From Polyangiaceae bacterium (GTDB lineage: Bacteria > Myxococcota_A > Polyangia > Polyangiales > Polyangiaceae): DNA of 60,896 nucleotides. The notes below the pieces were generated by a model that had not been told where the DNA came from, did no database searches, and worked only from the letters and a program-made list of their open reading frames with translations. The stretch lies in NCBI GenBank assembly GCA_029261965.1, contig JAJDAH010000464.1, positions 1-60,896 of the forward strand. Reading direction: 5' to 3'. Shown here one piece after another: positions 29,216 through 37,546 of this stretch (the stretch's first letter is position 1; each line of letters starts with the position of its first letter). Both the position numbers and the translations under genes were made by a program.

Positions 29216-30298
29216 GTGGCGACGAGCTCAGTCATCGGCAGCGGCGCTCCTTCGGCGGTCTCTGCCTCGAGTCCCACGGCGCGATCCCGTCTCGCGATGC
29301 GGTGGCTCGTGAGCCCGCGCTACGACTTGTTCTTTTTCATCGGGAGCTGCCTCGTCACCTGGGTGTTCCTCGGCATCTATCACGGCCTCGACCACTACGG
29401 TTGGGCGCCCCGGGTCGAGAGCGTGCTGTTGACCTATTTCGTCTTCACGGCGATTTTCGATCACCCGCACATCTTCCAGACGTTCTCGCGCACCCATGCG
29501 GATCGGGTCGAGTTCGCTCGGCATCGGAAGTCGCATACCTGGGGGCTCGCGGTTTTCGTGCTGGCGGGTTTTGCTCTCGCCGCGGCCAACCTCATCGGTC
29601 ACCTGATCGTGTTCGCCGCGATGTTCGGCAGCTTCCACATCATGCGCCAGCACTGGGGCATCCTTCGCGCCTACAAACATCTCAACCGAGACCGTTCGCC
29701 GCTCGACGATTGGCTCGATTTCGTCACGTTCTACTTGGGGGCAGTGGCGCTCTACTTTCACGACTACACCGACAATCCTCCCGAGACTGTCATTTACGGC
29801 AAGCTCACCGCGCCCTTTCCGAGCTTGCCGGCGCTGTTCGGCGAGCTGGCGCTCTACGCGTTCTACGGAGTGCTCGTGCTCTTCGTGCTTCGTCAGGTTT
29901 GGCTGTTCAAGACCGGCAGACGCATCAACGTTCCCAAGCTCGCGTTGATGACGGCGGCGCTTTCCACGCACGGGCTCATCTTCTTTTTCACGGCGACCCC
30001 GTTTCTCGTCGCCGAGGCGCTCGAGACGGCCTACCACAACGTCCAGTACCAAGGCTGGGTGATGCACTACCAAAGGCGCCGGTTCACCGGGCGCGCGATG
30101 GTGAAGCGGTGGTTTTTGATGGCCCTCGCTTATGGCGGCATCGTCGGCACGATCGAAGTCATTGCGCTGGCCGAGCCGCGACTCGGGTTCCTGTTCATCC
30201 CGTTCGGCATGGTGGTCATTTGGCACTACTGGGTGGACGGCAAGATCTGGCGGATGCGGGAGCAGCCGGAGCTCCGCGAAGCCGTGATCCCCCAGTAG
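29216..30298 (+). CDS. Histidine-rich polytopic membrane protein
   Basis: A 360-residue integral membrane protein with about seven hydrophobic segments. Histidine clusters lie at membrane faces: FDHPHIFQTFSRTH, HIMRQHWGI, YHNVQYQGWVMHYQ and WHYWVDGKIWR. The spacing recalls membrane di-metal oxygenases or desaturases, but no exact family signature is visible, so the enzyme class is a guess. GTG 29216 gives the longest frame; ATG 29297 (MRWLVSP) is a good alternative and removes a low-complexity leader. It follows the copper oxygenase by about 100 bp on the same strand. Confidence 0.82.
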   Translation: MATSSVIGSGAPSAVSASSPTARSRLAMRWLVSPRYDLFFFIGSCLVTWVFLGIYHGLDHYGWAPRVESVLLTYFVFTAIFDHPHIFQTFSRTHADRVEFARHRKSHTWGLAVFVLAGFALAAANLIGHLIVFAAMFGSFHIMRQHWGILRAYKHLNRDRSPLDDWLDFVTFYLGAVALYFHDYTDNPPETVIYGKLTAPFPSLPALFGELALYAFYGVLVLFVLRQVWLFKTGRRINVPKLALMTAALSTHGLIFFFTATPFLVAEALETAYHNVQYQGWVMHYQRRRFTGRAMVKRWFLMALAYGGIVGTIEVIALAEPRLGFLFIPFGMVVIWHYWVDGKIWRMREQPELREAVIPQ

Positions 30299-30395: not shown

Positions 30396-31571
30396 ATGGG
30401 ACAGGGACAGCCGCCGGGGAACCAATATCCGCCGGGGGGCGGGCCACCAGGATATCCGCCTGCCCAGCCGGCGGCGCCCGCGCAGCCAGGGGCGCCCGCG
30501 CAGCCGCAGGCACATCCGGGACAGGCGCCTCAGCAGCCAGGCTACGATCCAGCGCAGCAGTACCCGCAAGGTCAATACGGCCAGCCCGGTCAACCGCCGG
30601 CCGATCCCGCCGCCCATGCCGCTCAGCAGGCGGCGTACCAGCAGCACGCGGGCTATCAGGACCCAGCGGCGCAGCAGGCGGCGTACCAGGACCCAGCGGC
30701 GCAGCAGGCGGCGTACCAGGACCCAGCGGCGCAGCAGGCGGCTTACCAAGATCCGGCGGCGCAGCAGGCGGCTTACCAAGATCCCGCCGCGGCGCAGCAA
30801 GCGGCGTATCAGGATCCCGCGGCGGCACAGCAGGCGGCGTACGGGCAACCGGGAGTCGATCCCGCGGCGGCGTACGGGCAACCGGGCGTCGACCCGGCCG
30901 CCGCCTACGGGCAGCCGGGCGTGGATCCGGCGGCGGGCTATCCGCAGGAAGGCTTCGATTCGGGCACGTCCGAGCAGACCGAAGACGCGGTGTCACCCCA
31001 GAAGAAGTTCGCTGGCGCGCTCTTGATTGGCGGGATCGTCACCTTCGTCTTCGGGCTGCTCTTCTTGATAACCTCGGCGGTGTTCACGTCCGAGGATGGC
31101 AAGGCGATCAAGTCCGCCATGCCCGCGACGGGTGGCATTGTCGGACCGATCACCGTGGCCAAGGACAATCAGGTCCTGCTCATCGAGGTGAAGCAACGGC
31201 TGAACGGGCTCGGTTGGTCCTACGTCAACGGCGAGATGCTGGATGCCGAGCAGGAGTTCCTCTTCGGCTTCGGCTATGAGCTCTGGCACGAGACCGGATA
31301 CGACGAAGGTCACTGGGACGAGCAAGAGAACAACTACGACATCAAGGTCACCGTCCCGAAGAAGGGCACGTACTTCGCCTCTTTCGACACCGAGCAGCAG
31401 CCGGGGGTGCCGATCGGTGGCGACATCAACGTCAAGATCACGCCGAAGCTCGGTAGCGCCGTTCCGCACTTCGCGGCGGGCCTCCTGCTCCTCGTGTTTG
31501 GACTCATGCTCGCGATCGCCGGAGTCTGGGCTGCGCCCGTGCAGCTCAAGACGGCCGATGACGACGACTAG
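30396..31571 (+). CDS. Pro/Gln-rich tandem-repeat membrane protein
   Basis: A 391-residue protein. The first 190 residues are low-complexity: a PQ/G leader, then about six 10-11-residue units YQDPAAQQAA, then three 11-residue units YGQPGVDPAAA. One membrane segment follows at about 205-230 (ALLIGGIVTFVFGLLFLITSAVF), then a soluble domain of about 125 residues with YDEGHWDEQENNYDIKVTV. A final membrane segment near 360-380 carries a short acidic tail. The repeat arm would face the cytoplasm if the first segment is inserted N-in. It begins the closely spaced set 30396-34368. Confidence 0.82.
   Translation: MGQGQPPGNQYPPGGGPPGYPPAQPAAPAQPGAPAQPQAHPGQAPQQPGYDPAQQYPQGQYGQPGQPPADPAAHAAQQAAYQQHAGYQDPAAQQAAYQDPAAQQAAYQDPAAQQAAYQDPAAQQAAYQDPAAAQQAAYQDPAAAQQAAYGQPGVDPAAAYGQPGVDPAAAYGQPGVDPAAGYPQEGFDSGTSEQTEDAVSPQKKFAGALLIGGIVTFVFGLLFLITSAVFTSEDGKAIKSAMPATGGIVGPITVAKDNQVLLIEVKQRLNGLGWSYVNGEMLDAEQEFLFGFGYELWHETGYDEGHWDEQENNYDIKVTVPKKGTYFASFDTEQQPGVPIGGDINVKITPKLGSAVPHFAAGLLLLVFGLMLAIAGVWAAPVQLKTADDDD
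30652..30942 (+). repeat. 30-33-bp tandem repeats in coding sequence
   Basis: About six units of 30-33 bp encode YQDPAAQQAA, and three 33-bp units encode YGQPGVDPAAA. All keep frame, so copy number can vary without breaking the gene. Confidence 0.9.
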
Positions 31572-31589
31572 GGAGAAAGGGGTGTTGCC

Positions 31590-31799
31590 GTGAAGATCCT
31601 CATGCTTGGAGTTCTACCGCTGATGCTCGCCGGAACCTGGGGAGCACTCATGCTCCCGAGCATGAGCGGCTACGGCTACGCCGGGCACAACGGCTGGAAC
31701 CACGGTCCGTCGTTCTTTTATTTCAACAGTACTTCGACCGTCGCCGGCCGCAGCGTGCGCGGCTCCGGACGGGTCGGGGGCACGGGCGGGGGCAAGTAG
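31590..31799 (+). CDS. 69-residue exported Gly-rich peptide
   Basis: A tiny gene starting at GTG 31590, 18 bp after the preceding stop, with GGGAGAAAGGGG upstream as ribosome site. Residues 1-25 form a signal peptide or membrane segment (ILMLGVLPLMLAGTWGALML). The remainder is aromatic- and Gly-rich (YGYAGHNGWNHGPSFFYF) and ends in a basic Gly tail (RGSGRVGGTGGGK). No family recognised. Its place directly before an aminopropyltransferase-like gene makes it a conceivable partner or substrate; that is inference only. Confidence 0.65.
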   Translation: MKILMLGVLPLMLAGTWGALMLPSMSGYGYAGHNGWNHGPSFFYFNSTSTVAGRSVRGSGRVGGTGGGK

Positions 31800-31839
31800 C
31801 CCCGGCGGCGTTTCTTCCGCCGCACCCGAGACATGTTCG

Positions 31840-33465
31840 ATGGCTACCGACGCTTCCCCGCTCGTCGAGCCTCAGCTCGCGGATGACGGCGACATAGCGT
31901 CGTCCGGCGAGGCGGGGGGTTCGGGGCCAGCGTCCAAGCAGATAGAAGCGCTCTCGAAGTCGCAGACGGCCGTTTTGGTGCTCGCGGTCTTCGTCGCGGG
32001 GCTCTGCTCGATCGTCTACGAGCTCCTGATTGCCACCGCGTCGTCCTACTTCCTCGGTGACAGCATTCGGCAGTTCTCGATCACCATCGGGATCTTCATG
32101 GCGTCGATGGGGCTTGGCTCGTTCCTTTCGCGCAATCTCGGCGAACGCGTGCTCGGTACTTTCGTGGTGGTCGAGGTCGCGCTCGGCATCGTCGGCGGCA
32201 TTTCGATTCCTGTCCTCTACGCGGTCTACGCCTACACCGACCTCTACACGCCCGCGATGATGGTCTTCATCGGCATCGTCGGCACCCTGACCGGCCTCGA
32301 GATCCCCATCCTCGTCTTGGCGATGCGGCGCTTCCTCAAGCTCAACGTCAATCTTTCGACGATTCTTTCGCTCGACTACTTCGGGGCGCTCGGCGCGACC
32401 CTGCTTTTTCCGTTTGCGCTCCTCCCGCTGCTCGGCACGTTCAAAAGCCCGTTGGTCATCGGCCTCTTGAACCTGGCGGTGGCGCTGCTCGTTCTTCGGG
32501 CGTTCAAAGATCAAATCGAGATCAACAAGCGCATCGCGGGCACCATCGGCGCGCTCGGCGGCCTGCTCGGCCTCGGGCTCTTGCTGGTGTTCTCCGGCGA
32601 TCTGCTGCGCCCGTGGCACGAAGCCATCTACGAGGACAAGGTCCTGCTCGCGCGGCAGTCGCCGTACCAGAAAATCGTCCTCACGCGGTACCGCAACGAC
32701 GTCCGTCTCTACCTGAACGGCAACCTGCAGTTCTCCTCGTGGGACGAGTACCGCTACCACGAAGCGATAGTGCACCCCGCCTTCTCGCTCGCTCCCCGGC
32801 GCGAGCAGGTGCTCGTGCTCGGCGGCGGCGACGGCCTCGCCGCTCGCGAGATGCTCAAGTACGACGACACCAAGACGATCACCATCGTCGACCTCGATCC
32901 GGTGATCACCGAGATCGCGAAAACGCAGCACCTCGTCCGCGAGCTCAACGGAGACAGCCTCGCCTCGGGGCGCGTCACGGTGCAGAACGAAGACGCCTGG
33001 GTGTTCCTCGAGGGCTCGGAAACGCGGTGGGACGTCATCGTCATCGACCTCCCCGACCCCAATGACACGTCACTAGCGAGGCTCTACAGCCGGGAGTTCT
33101 ACGGTCTGGTCCGCCGCCACCTCGCGAAAGACGGCGTGCTCGTCACTCAAGCGACCAGCCCGTTTTTCGCCAGCGAGGCGTTTTGGACGATCGTCGCGAC
33201 GATGGAAGCTGCGGGCCTCCACACGCGGCCCTATCACGCCAACGTGCCGTCGTTCGGCGATTGGGGTTTCGTGCTCGGCGCCAGCTATCCGCTCGACACG
33301 TCGAAGATTCGAGTGACCGTCCCGGCACGCTATCTCGACGACACGATGGTGTCGTCGATGTTCGATTTCCCGCGCGACGTTCGAGTCGCCGACGCTGAGC
33401 GGAGTACCCTCGACGACCCGGTCGTCCTGGGGCTCTACCTGAAGGGTTGGAAGCGCTGGAGGTAG
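31840..33465 (+). CDS. Membrane SpeE-like aminopropyltransferase
   Basis: A 541-residue protein of the long, membrane-bound spermidine-synthase-like class. About seven membrane segments occupy residues 45-265. The C-terminal half is a methyltransferase-fold domain with the glycine-rich loop VLGGGDGLAAREML, DLDPVITEIAK and the catalytic region VIDLPDPNDTSLARLYS, typical of long SpeE proteins. It should transfer aminopropyl groups from decarboxylated S-adenosylmethionine; the acceptor may not be putrescine. It is 40 bp after the small peptide and 27 bp before the DUF350 gene. Confidence 0.9.
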   Translation: MATDASPLVEPQLADDGDIASSGEAGGSGPASKQIEALSKSQTAVLVLAVFVAGLCSIVYELLIATASSYFLGDSIRQFSITIGIFMASMGLGSFLSRNLGERVLGTFVVVEVALGIVGGISIPVLYAVYAYTDLYTPAMMVFIGIVGTLTGLEIPILVLAMRRFLKLNVNLSTILSLDYFGALGATLLFPFALLPLLGTFKSPLVIGLLNLAVALLVLRAFKDQIEINKRIAGTIGALGGLLGLGLLLVFSGDLLRPWHEAIYEDKVLLARQSPYQKIVLTRYRNDVRLYLNGNLQFSSWDEYRYHEAIVHPAFSLAPRREQVLVLGGGDGLAAREMLKYDDTKTITIVDLDPVITEIAKTQHLVRELNGDSLASGRVTVQNEDAWVFLEGSETRWDVIVIDLPDPNDTSLARLYSREFYGLVRRHLAKDGVLVTQATSPFFASEAFWTIVATMEAAGLHTRPYHANVPSFGDWGFVLGASYPLDTSKIRVTVPARYLDDTMVSSMFDFPRDVRVADAERSTLDDPVVLGLYLKGWKRWR

Positions 33466-33492
33466 CCCTCCTCGCTAGTCAAAGGAACCGAA

Positions 33493-34368
33493 ATGGACCA
33501 GAGCATCGAGCTACTCAAGAAGACAGCAGGAGCGCTGCCGCGCGACATCGCGTACATCGCGCTCGTTCTGTTCGTTCTGTTCATCGCGCGCATCGTCAAG
33601 GACCTGCTGACGCCTTACAAGCTCTCCGAACAGCTCACGACCGCCGACAACCCTGCTGTCGGCATGTCGCTCGCCGGCTACTACATCTCGGTGCTCATCG
33701 TCTGCATCGGCCCTCTCCGCACGGCGCCGAGCGCCGAAACGGTTCCGCTCTGGAAGGACCTGCTCATCACTGGTGGTTGGGCCCTGCTCGGTATCGTACT
33801 CTTGAACGCCGCGCGCATCCTCGTGGACAAGGTGCTGCTCACCGACTTCAGCGTCGTCAAAGAGATCGTCGAAGACCGGAACATTGGTACCGGTGCCGTC
33901 GAAATGGGCGCCTACGTCGCCTCCGGTCTAGTCGTGGCTGCCGCGCTCCAAGGTCAGGGCGGCGGTCCGCACACCGCGTTGGCGTTTTTTGCCCTCGGCC
34001 AGGTAGCCCTCATCGCGTATGGCCGTTTGTACTGCGTGGTGTGCCGCTACGACGTGCACGGCCAGATCGAGAAGGACAACGTGGCGGCCGGTGTCGCCCT
34101 TGGACTCAATCTCGTTGCCTGCGGTGTGGTGCTCGCCGGCGCAATAGCGGGCGATTTCCTGAGCTGGGAACACAACCTCATGAAGTTCGCCATGATCTTC
34201 ATCCTTGGCGCAATCTTCTTGCTGATCCTGCGCGTGCTCATCGATTTTCTGCTGTTCCCCGGCGTGCGAATGGACAAGGAGATCGAAGAGGACAAGAACC
34301 TGAACGCCGCCTGGGTTGAAGGCGCCGTACTCGCGGGCATGGCGGCGCTGTTGGTGACGATTCTCTAG
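33493..34368 (+). CDS. DUF350 membrane protein (two tandem DUF350 units)
   Basis: A 291-residue membrane protein with about eight segments arranged as two DUF350-like halves. Each half carries a DNPAVGMSLAGYYIS / DNVAAGVALGLNLVA core, the conserved D/N-N-x-A-x-G motif of the family. A good ribosome site (AAGGA) precedes ATG 33493. DUF350 proteins (for example E. coli YjfL) are often encoded beside SpeE-like or glutathionylspermidine-synthase-like and PspA-like genes. That association supports a joint role with the aminopropyltransferase 27 bp upstream. Confidence 0.9.
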   Translation: MDQSIELLKKTAGALPRDIAYIALVLFVLFIARIVKDLLTPYKLSEQLTTADNPAVGMSLAGYYISVLIVCIGPLRTAPSAETVPLWKDLLITGGWALLGIVLLNAARILVDKVLLTDFSVVKEIVEDRNIGTGAVEMGAYVASGLVVAAALQGQGGGPHTALAFFALGQVALIAYGRLYCVVCRYDVHGQIEKDNVAAGVALGLNLVACGVVLAGAIAGDFLSWEHNLMKFAMIFILGAIFLLILRVLIDFLLFPGVRMDKEIEEDKNLNAAWVEGAVLAGMAALLVTIL

Positions 34369-36396: not shown

Positions 36397-36496
36397 CTCC
36401 GCGGCGGCCGCCAGTCCGCCGCGCTCCCCGCTGCAGCGCCCCAGAACTTCGCGTAGGATCTGCCGCCTCTGCGCTCTTGGAAGGGACTTGAAACTC

Positions 36497-37546
36497 ATGA
36501 AATGGATCGCGTGGACCGCGCTAGCTGCTGGATTTGCTCTTTCGTGCTCTAGCGGCAGCGGCGGCACGAGCGGCAGCGGCGGCACGAGCGGCAGCGGCGG
36601 CATGAGCGGCAGCGGCGGCATGAGCGGCAGCGGCGGCACGAGCGGCAGCGGCGGCACGAGCGGCAGCGGCGGCACGAGCAGCAGCGGCGGCACGAGCGGC
36701 AGCGGCGGCACGAGCAGCAGCGGCGGCTCCCCCGCCACTGGCGGCACGAGCGGTAGCGCCGGCGCGGGCACCGGCGGCGCGGCGGGCTCACCAGGCGCGG
36801 GCGGCGCGGCGGGCTCGCCATCTACAGGTGGCGCCGCGGGCGCCGGAGGAAGCGCCGGCACTCCGGGAAGTTTTGCCGACGACTTTGCTGGCGACGGGCC
36901 TTTGCTCGGCTACACGACCAACAACGCCTCGTCGCTGCCCGGCGTCGCGCGGGTTGGCGGCCGTTACCGAGCGAACCTGGTCGACAACACGAACAACATC
37001 ACCCTGCACTTTCACACCGACCAGGGAAGGATCGACGCGAAGCTCCTGAGCTTCCCGTTCGACATCGTCGCCCGCAACATCGGGATCGGGACACAGGCAG
37101 CCTCGCAGATCGCGCCGCCTACCGCCGGCGATCCGTTCATCTTCGCCGGTGTTCAAGTGCACGCGAGCGACTTCGATTCGATCAATTCTTCGCACGTCGT
37201 CGTTGGACATCGGGGCTCGACGCACTTCACCATCGAGGGCAAGAACACCGTGAACGGCAGCTCGTCGGTCAACGACGACGGCGCGGACGTGCTGCCCGCC
37301 GGCCGCGCGGACATTCGCATAGCTGGGAGCGCGGCGCGCCAGCTCACCGTGTACTGGCAGGTGCCGAATCCGCAGCCCGGCGTGCAGGCGGACAACTGGA
37401 ACCTGTATCGCGGCACCGGCACGCTCCCCAGTACGGCTCCCGCATACGGCCCCCAGGTCTACGTCGGACTCATCACCTATGCGTTCAACCAGGGCGGCAT
37501 CCCGTTCGTCGGCACCTGCGACGGCCTCGAGGGCGGCTCGCTCTAG
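36497..37546 (+). CDS. Lipoprotein with (SGSGGT)n linker
   Basis: A 349-residue exported protein. Signal and lipobox FALSCSSG lead into ten perfect or near-perfect SGSGGT/M units, then a Gly/Ala linker to about residue 125. The soluble domain begins FADDFAGDGPLLGYTTNN and is rich in beta-strand and aromatic residues (TLHFHTDQGRIDAKLL, VYWQVPNPQPGVQADNWNLY), reminiscent of a jelly-roll or LamG-like carbohydrate-binding fold. No catalytic motif is visible. ATG 36497 follows GGAAGGG. The transcript ends at the long hairpin at 37563. Confidence 0.82.
   Translation: MKWIAWTALAAGFALSCSSGSGGTSGSGGTSGSGGMSGSGGMSGSGGTSGSGGTSGSGGTSSSGGTSGSGGTSSSGGSPATGGTSGSAGAGTGGAAGSPGAGGAAGSPSTGGAAGAGGSAGTPGSFADDFAGDGPLLGYTTNNASSLPGVARVGGRYRANLVDNTNNITLHFHTDQGRIDAKLLSFPFDIVARNIGIGTQAASQIAPPTAGDPFIFAGVQVHASDFDSINSSHVVVGHRGSTHFTIEGKNTVNGSSSVNDDGADVLPAGRADIRIAGSAARQLTVYWQVPNPQPGVQADNWNLYRGTGTLPSTAPAYGPQVYVGLITYAFNQGGIPFVGTCDGLEGGSL
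36551..36730 (+). repeat. 18-bp tandem repeat, ten copies, in coding sequence
   Basis: Ten 18-bp units (AGCGGCAGCGGCGGCACG with single-base variants) encode the SGSGGT linker behind the lipobox. This is the longest near-perfect short tandem array in the window. Confidence 0.93.

What the first reader, a model, noticed from the sequence alone, without database searches (positions are those of the whole stretch)
30396..34368. Candidate polyamine-linked envelope system: repeat membrane protein, 69-residue exported peptide, membrane SpeE, DUF350
Four genes on one strand with gaps of 18, 40 and 27 bp. The SpeE-like enzyme is the long membrane form. DUF350 genes are known to sit beside SpeE-like, PspA-like or glutathionylspermidine-synthase-like genes. 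Here the partners are different: a PQ-rich tandem-repeat membrane protein and a tiny exported Gly-rich peptide, either of which could be a substrate or sensor. This combination is not one I recognise. Co-transcription and joint function are inferred from spacing.
Basis: partly seen in the sequence, partly recalled or inferred. Interest (0 to 1): 0.75.

Follow-up and report, generated by a model that had tools for sequence, protein, structure and literature searches.

The report
Lysine-tailed microprotein beside membrane aminopropyltransferase
Next to a membrane-bound polyamine-type enzyme whose natural target is unknown sits a tiny exported protein whose relatives in many bacterial phyla, however different, nearly all end in a lysine, which makes that lysine the best candidate so far for what the enzyme modifies.

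Summary
The four genes are real and at the stated coordinates. The operon type is known in outline: 7-TM SpeE plus 8-TM DUF350, often with DUF4178 and CesT/Tir-PspA (Ravi et al. 2024, PMC11237479).

Homologues lie between DUF4178/beta-protein and DUF350/SpeE in Myxococcota, Acidobacteriota, Bacteroidota, Proteobacteria, Nitrospirota and others. In Clostridia the tail is fused to DUF4178, in a gammaproteobacterium to the beta-protein, in other Bacillota to DUF4247 proteins. A position-only rule gives C-terminal Lys in 43 of 52 loci against 5% background. DUF4247 proteins end in -GK when SpeE is in the operon (12/12) and never when it is not (0/5). A peptide model searched over 231 whole genomes put SpeE within about 1.5 kb of 18 of the 20 best hits.

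SpeE keeps its aminopropyl-transfer residues, and seven TM helices predict its catalytic domain outside the membrane, where the tails are predicted to be. Best explanation: SpeE aminopropylates the C-terminal lysine of this tail. The chemistry is inferred, not shown. The PQ repeats are not conserved; the beta-sandwich behind them is.

The parts
29216..30298 (+). membrane protein (360 aa, '...HYWVDGKIWRM'), possible fifth member of the unit
   Evidence: Same family as proteins lying about 3.1 kb downstream of the SpeE start in some 14 other loci (21% identity, E 1e-9); 97 bp before 30396; no Pfam or NCBIfam family
30396..31571 (+). repeat/beta membrane protein: PQ-rich N-terminus, TM, beta-sandwich, TM
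   Evidence: orthologues without repeats in G057, Ensifer, L093 and L095
30641..30936 (+). 30-bp and 33-bp tandem repeats (AAQQAAYQDP; AYGQPGVDPAA) encoding the low-complexity N-terminus
   Evidence: Tandem Repeats Finder; absent from the G057 orthologue
31107..31448 (+). beta-sandwich domain, predicted extracytoplasmic (residues about 238-351)
   Evidence: AlphaFold2 model m7cd4d60257fe, pLDDT 87.6; weak jelly-roll/GOLD-like matches
31590..31799 (+). 69-aa exported microprotein, N-terminal hydrophobic segment and Gly-rich tail ...SVRGSGRVGGTGGGK
   Evidence: homologues in A6 and A10; whole-genome association with SpeE
31794..31796 (+). codon (AAG) of the conserved C-terminal lysine
31840..33465 (+). 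membrane aminopropyltransferase (long SpeE)
   Evidence: NF002956 603 bits; AlphaFold2 model pLDDT 91.3; Foldseek 1uir/3anx
31957..32589 (+). seven TM helices of SpeE (residues 40-250)
32629..33462 (+). catalytic domain with Y306, D331, D351, D385, D403, D406 conserved
33493..34368 (+). 8-TM DUF350 protein made of four 2-TM units (33544-33702, 33751-33948, 33976-34146, 34189-34344)
   Evidence: PF03994 twice; four hits of a 2-TM profile

Best explanation
The unit is an envelope protein-modification system. The long SpeE is an aminopropyltransferase whose acceptor is not a free polyamine but the C-terminal lysine of the co-encoded, membrane-anchored microprotein (31590-31799). SpeE takes the aminopropyl group of decarboxylated SAM, made by SpeD, and adds it to the lysine epsilon-amine, once or repeatedly. 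This gives an extracytoplasmic protein with a polyamine-like C-terminus, comparable in idea to deoxyhypusine, silaffin lysines or the products of peptide-spermidine ligases. The beta-sandwich protein would hold or present the tail, and the four-unit DUF350 protein would be a channel or permease, for example for decarboxylated SAM or the tail's counter-ions. Shown here: gene linkage across phyla, the Lys-ended tail, its dependence on SpeE within DUF4247, intact catalytic residues. Predicted: both the tail and the SpeE catalytic domain outside the membrane. Inferred: the acceptor, the chemistry, and the roles of DUF350 and the beta domain. I put about 0.8 on the tail being the specific partner of SpeE and about 0.5 on the lysine being chemically modified.
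For: Position-only, C-terminus-blind rule: 43 of 52 loci end in Lys against 5.3% background, nominal p 3e-46 (related sequences, so inflated); at least seven of the nine misses are mis-picks with a Lys-ended small ORF in the same locus. Terminal Lys uses AAA 37 / AAG 32 and the penultimate Gly all four codons, so selection is on the protein. The tail moves between carriers: standalone, fused to the beta-protein (L095), to DUF4178 (Clostridia) and to DUF4247 proteins, always at the extreme C-terminus. DUF4247 control: 12/12 end -GK with SpeE in the operon, 0/5 without SpeE within 5-7 kb; Paenibacillus sedimenti has one of each (Fisher 1.6e-4). A peptide model over 231 genomes: SpeE within about 1.5 kb of 18 of the best 20 hits. 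Y306, D403 and D406 are invariant in 62 diverse SpeEs and D331 nearly so; these match the catalytic residues listed in PMC7298707. SpeD occurs in 15 of 16 genomes checked and in the window's own. Positive-inside loops put the SpeE catalytic domain outside, as are the tails. E. coli counterparts with ATP-grasp peptide-spermidine ligases end in Gly-Gly instead (YgiB, YjfM). An amine-oxidase-like flavoprotein, usually with an export-type signal sequence, follows SpeE in many loci.
Against: No biochemical data. A group of myxobacterial DUF350+SpeE pairs, including a second one in this genome (C408), has no tail gene nearby. An outside catalytic domain needs decarboxylated SAM to cross the membrane, and I know of no such exporter. 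A conserved C-terminal Lys could equally be a docking motif that is never modified. In Bacteroidota and a few others only the last two or three residues (YHK, HHK, RVK) are kept, so recognition would have to be loose.
Confidence: 0.5

Rival explanations
1. The tail is a ligand, not a substrate: its C-terminal Gly-Lys inserts into the SpeE amine pocket as a pseudosubstrate that senses or inhibits SpeE, coupling envelope state (beta domain, PspA) to production of a small polyamine.
For: Fits every linkage result, the invariant Lys, and the Rosetta-stone fusions with the beta-protein and DUF4178.
Against: Long SpeE is reported not to make spermidine or complement speE (Li et al. 2019, from memory; cited as ref 89 in PMC11237479). 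A sensor does not need to be so loosely conserved except for the reactive amine.
Confidence: 0.25
2. SpeE makes or modifies a small amine or lipid headgroup at the membrane, and the microprotein is a structural or anchoring subunit whose C-terminal Lys binds anionic lipid or another partner.
For: Polyamine-type enzyme in the membrane; DUF350 and PspA link to membrane stress (PMC11237479).
Against: Does not explain why the Lys end is lost in DUF4247 proteins of operons that keep DUF350, DUF4178 and a PspA-like gene but lack SpeE.
Confidence: 0.15
3. The catalytic domain is cytosolic and modifies the tail before export; only the proposed location is wrong (a variant of the best explanation, so its probability overlaps with it).
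For: Decarboxylated SAM is made in the cytosol; the 7-TM count and positive-inside rule are predictions.
Against: K+R per loop averages 2.7, 2.5 and 3.3 after TM2, TM4 and TM6 against 0.2, 0.6 and 1.1 after TM1, TM3 and TM5 over 111 sequences, i.e. N-in and catalytic domain out; the model shows a TM7 helix.
Confidence: 0.3
4. Unrelated neighbours: peptide and repeat protein lie beside SpeE/DUF350 by chance.
For: No transcript data.
Against: Recurrence in several phyla and whole-genome association.
Confidence: 0.01

Closest known systems
PspA 'group 2' operons with membrane spermidine-synthase-like protein (Ravi et al. 2024, PMC11237479)
   Same: SpeE with N-terminal 7 TM, 8-TM DUF350 (YjfL), an extracytoplasmic partner protein; in G057 and L093 also CesT/Tir, PspA and DUF4178.
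   Different: Window lacks adjacent PspA, CesT and DUF4178 (found elsewhere in its genome); it carries a detached beta domain with PQ repeats and the Lys-ended microprotein. The passages found in that paper mention a Ctha_1186 lipoprotein but no C-terminal lysine.
AdoMetDC / MFS-SpdSyn fusion / DUF350 clusters (Li et al. 2019, Biochem J 476:2579; from memory, paper not held)
   Same: Same enzyme class and DUF350; those authors proposed that the fusion aminopropylates something other than putrescine.
   Different: As I recall it, no acceptor was proposed; the Lys-ended tail supplies a candidate.
E. coli YgiBC / YjfIJKLMC with peptide-spermidine ligases YgiC and YjfC (Pederick et al. 2023, cited in PMC12568646)
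   Same: DUF350, PspA and CesT-like context in yjf; exported partner with a Gly/Ser/Arg-rich tail.
   Different: ATP-grasp ligase instead of SpeE; tails end in Gly-Gly, a carboxylate end, not Gly-Lys.
Deoxyhypusine on eIF5A and polyamine-modified silaffin lysines (general knowledge)
   Same: Polyamine-type group on a lysine epsilon-amine.
   Different: Different enzymes, cellular site and protein; no homology claimed.

Membership tests
Long membrane polyamine aminopropyltransferase (NF002956 / PRK03612) | profile score above curated cut-off | tested here: met
   603 bits against 472
Long membrane polyamine aminopropyltransferase (NF002956 / PRK03612) | aminopropyl-transfer residues (Tyr, Asp, Asp, Asp) | tested here: met
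   Y306, D331, D403 and D406 present
DUF350 (PF03994), 8-TM YjfL type | DUF350 profile and eight TM segments | tested here: met
   E 1.4e-49, two domains, eight hydrophobic segments, four 2-TM units
PspA group 2 operon (Ravi et al. 2024) | SpeE with 7 TM plus 8-TM DUF350 | tested here: met
PspA group 2 operon (Ravi et al. 2024) | adjacent CesT/Tir-PspA dyad | tested here: not met
   Absent from the window operon; PspA on contigs C119 and C148, with a CesT-like gene beside PspA on C119. Present in relatives G057 and L093
PspA group 2 operon (Ravi et al. 2024) | adjacent DUF4178 | tested here: not met
   DUF4178 only on C296 and C67
PspA group 2 operon (Ravi et al. 2024) | Ctha_1186 lipoprotein | not testable with these tools
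   No profile of that name was available; the window peptide matches no Pfam or NCBIfam family
Peptide-spermidine ligase system (YgiBC/YjfMC) | ATP-grasp ligase and exported protein ending Gly-Gly | tested here: not met
   No such ligase among the four genes; the tail ends Gly-Lys
Lysine aminopropylation (proposed) | added aminopropyl mass on the C-terminal Lys | not testable with these tools
   needs mass spectrometry

The most novel reading that the evidence does not exclude
A widespread bacterial post-translational modification: extracytoplasmic aminopropylation of the C-terminal lysine of dedicated Gly-rich tails by membrane SpeE, answering what the 'polyamine-independent' AdoMet decarboxylase/SpeE pair is for.
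Probability: 0.45. Interest if true: 0.92.

Novelty: new variant of a known kind. Interest (0 to 1): 0.78.

Why it matters
Membrane-fused spermidine synthases and DUF350 are found in many bacterial phyla, and their acceptor is an open question. A shared C-terminal lysine on a co-encoded tail, kept across unrelated carrier proteins and lost where SpeE is absent, turns that question into a direct mass-spectrometry test. If right, it adds a new kind of protein modification and a way for cells to put a polyamine charge on their envelope; it would also pair with the peptide-spermidine ligase systems, the two chemistries being matched to Lys-ended and Gly-ended tails.

Tried and rejected
Repeat region as the functional core: rejected, since the repeats are absent from the G057 orthologue. 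Known family for the peptide: none in Pfam or NCBIfam. Chance C-terminal Lys or DNA-level constraint: rejected by background and codon use. Solved homologue of the beta domain: only weak jelly-roll/GOLD-like matches. Sigma-70 promoters or a decisive terminator map: none found. Pseudomonas SpeE2 of the ISS locus as the same system: rejected, it has changed catalytic residues (PMC7298707). Prior description of the tail: not found in the held library, but most subscription papers, including Li et al. 2019, could not be read.

Full report
OBSERVATION. The 541-aa protein is the long membrane aminopropyltransferase (NF002956, 603 bits). The 291-aa protein is DUF350 and consists of four copies of the 2-TM unit that occurs alone as a 70-aa protein in other operons, i.e. 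a pseudo-tetramer. The 391-aa protein has 30-bp and 33-bp tandem repeats, then TM - beta-sandwich - TM. The 69-aa protein has one N-terminal hydrophobic segment and a Gly-rich tail ending ...SVRGSGRVGGTGGGK. The upstream gene 29216-30298 belongs to a membrane-protein family that in some 14 other loci lies downstream of SpeE and an amine-oxidase-like flavoprotein, so it may be a fifth member.

KNOWN CONTEXT. Ravi et al. 2024 (PMC11237479) describe PspA operons with CesT/Tir, DUF4178, 8-TM DUF350, a lipoprotein and SpeE fused to 7 TM. G057, from the same order, has that whole operon split over two contigs: CesT, PspA, DUF4178, DUF350, then the orthologue of the window's beta-protein without repeats, a 69-aa peptide, and a SpeE 51% identical to the window's. 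The window operon keeps beta-protein, peptide, SpeE and DUF350, while PspA (with a CesT-like gene) and DUF4178 lie elsewhere in the genome. Because two defining features of the published operon are missing here, I call it a variant, not a member.

THE PEPTIDE RECURS. Ensifer sp. PDNC004 (plasmid), a Nitrospirota MAG and a Cellvibrionales MAG carry beta-protein, peptide, SpeE and 8-TM DUF350 in one block. In the Cellvibrionales genome beta-protein and peptide are one fused ORF. All five peptides end in Gly-Lys.

THE C-TERMINAL LYSINE. I then looked at long-SpeE loci from 80 genome contigs and from relatives. In the gap between the DUF4178/beta gene and short DUF350 there is often a small ORF with an N-terminal hydrophobic segment, and nearly every one ends in Lys. 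A position-only rule that ignores the C-terminus gives 43 of 52 against 5.3% for ORFs of 150 aa or more; at least seven of the nine misses are mis-picks with a Lys-ended small ORF in the same locus. Codon use (AAA 37, AAG 32; all four Gly codons before it) shows selection on the protein. In Clostridia the same tail (SSVRQSS..R.SSGGGTSSGK) ends the DUF4178 protein itself, after one TM segment. In other Bacillota it ends DUF4247 proteins.

CONTROLS. (a) DUF4247: 12 of 12 distinct proteins with SpeE in the operon end in -GK; 0 of 5 in operons that lack SpeE within 5-7 kb do (ends RRR, GRR, RRK); Fisher 1.6e-4. One genome, Paenibacillus sedimenti, has both kinds. (b) A model of 25 peptides (A10) searched over 231 genomes of the class without regard to SpeE: of the 20 best hits, 18 have SpeE within about 1.5 kb and all have the beta/DUF4178 or DUF350 gene. 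The model was built from Lys-ended peptides, so only the adjacency, not the Lys, is independent in this test, and two of the 20 hits (window, G057) were in the model. (c) The ATP-grasp counterparts in E. coli, YgiB and YjfM, end in Gly-Gly, next to YgiC and YjfC, annotated as peptide-spermidine ligases and characterised as such (Pederick et al. 2023, cited in PMC12568646).

ENZYME. The SpeE model (pLDDT 91.3) matches solved aminopropyltransferases (1uir, 3anx). The residues reported as catalytic in spermidine synthase (listed in PMC7298707) are present: Y306, D403 and D406 invariant in 62 diverse sequences, D331 nearly so. Seven TM helices with K/R-rich loops after TM2, TM4 and TM6 (2.7, 2.5 and 3.3 per loop against 0.2, 0.6 and 1.1 after TM1, TM3 and TM5) predict N-in and the catalytic domain outside. 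The tails are predicted outside too: single-TM microproteins, on average with the more basic N-terminal flank, fusions after one TM, lipoprotein-like DUF4247. SpeD, the source of decarboxylated SAM, is in 15 of 16 genomes checked and in the window's own.

MECHANISM. The simplest account is that SpeE transfers aminopropyl groups to the lysine amine at the end of the tail. Li et al. 2019 (from memory; not held; cited in PMC11237479) concluded that such fusions act on something other than putrescine. The tail is a candidate that fits linkage, location and chemistry. What the modified tail does (binding anionic lipid, tuning PspA or a K+ channel, being oxidised by the neighbouring flavoprotein) is open.

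WEAK POINTS. No biochemistry. A group of myxobacterial DUF350-SpeE pairs, including C408 of this genome, has no tail nearby; in G043 the best tail hit (contig C138) lies on another contig than its SpeE (C275), so unlinked arrangements may occur. Export of decarboxylated SAM would be needed. A docking role without modification explains most of the same data.

VERDICT. Observation confirmed; interpretation partly supported and sharpened. The operon type is known; the Lys-ended tail family and its dependence on SpeE appear undescribed in the literature I could search.

Noticed in passing
G000:C408 (L066:8796-10638): Second long SpeE in the same genome with a 74-aa 2-TM DUF350 and a divergent amine-oxidase-like flavoprotein, but no Lys-ended tail nearby; a similar layout recurs in L080, L082, L021, L030 and L033.
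   Followed up: partly
L110:10544-12151, L112:10695-12326, L162:10509-12122 and about 50 loci: An amine-oxidase-like flavoprotein (PF01593), usually with an RR-type or other export signal, directly follows SpeE; it could oxidise the product outside the cell membrane.
   Followed up: partly
window 29216-30298: Membrane-protein family with no Pfam/NCBIfam model, recurrent near SpeE-flavoprotein pairs.
   Followed up: partly
L193, L194, L213, L214: DUF4247 proteins of SpeE-less DUF350/DUF4178 operons end in a polybasic run (IMRRR, KRGRR), another conserved end of unknown meaning.
   Followed up: no
L093:4335-5321, L095:713-1822, L119:4624-5649: Ion-channel proteins of K+ channel type (RCK/TrkA_N in L093) lie in several of these operons.
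   Followed up: no
window 33493-34368: DUF350 exists as 2-, 4- and 8-TM forms; the 8-TM form is four tandem units, suggesting a tetrameric channel-like assembly.
   Followed up: partly
G057 contigs C15 and C327: The two contig ends overlap at 95.6% DNA identity, suggesting strain mixture in that assembly.
   Followed up: no
window 36551-36841: 18-bp and 27-bp tandem repeats encoding a Gly/Ser-rich stretch in a lipoprotein-like gene (36488-37546).
   Followed up: no
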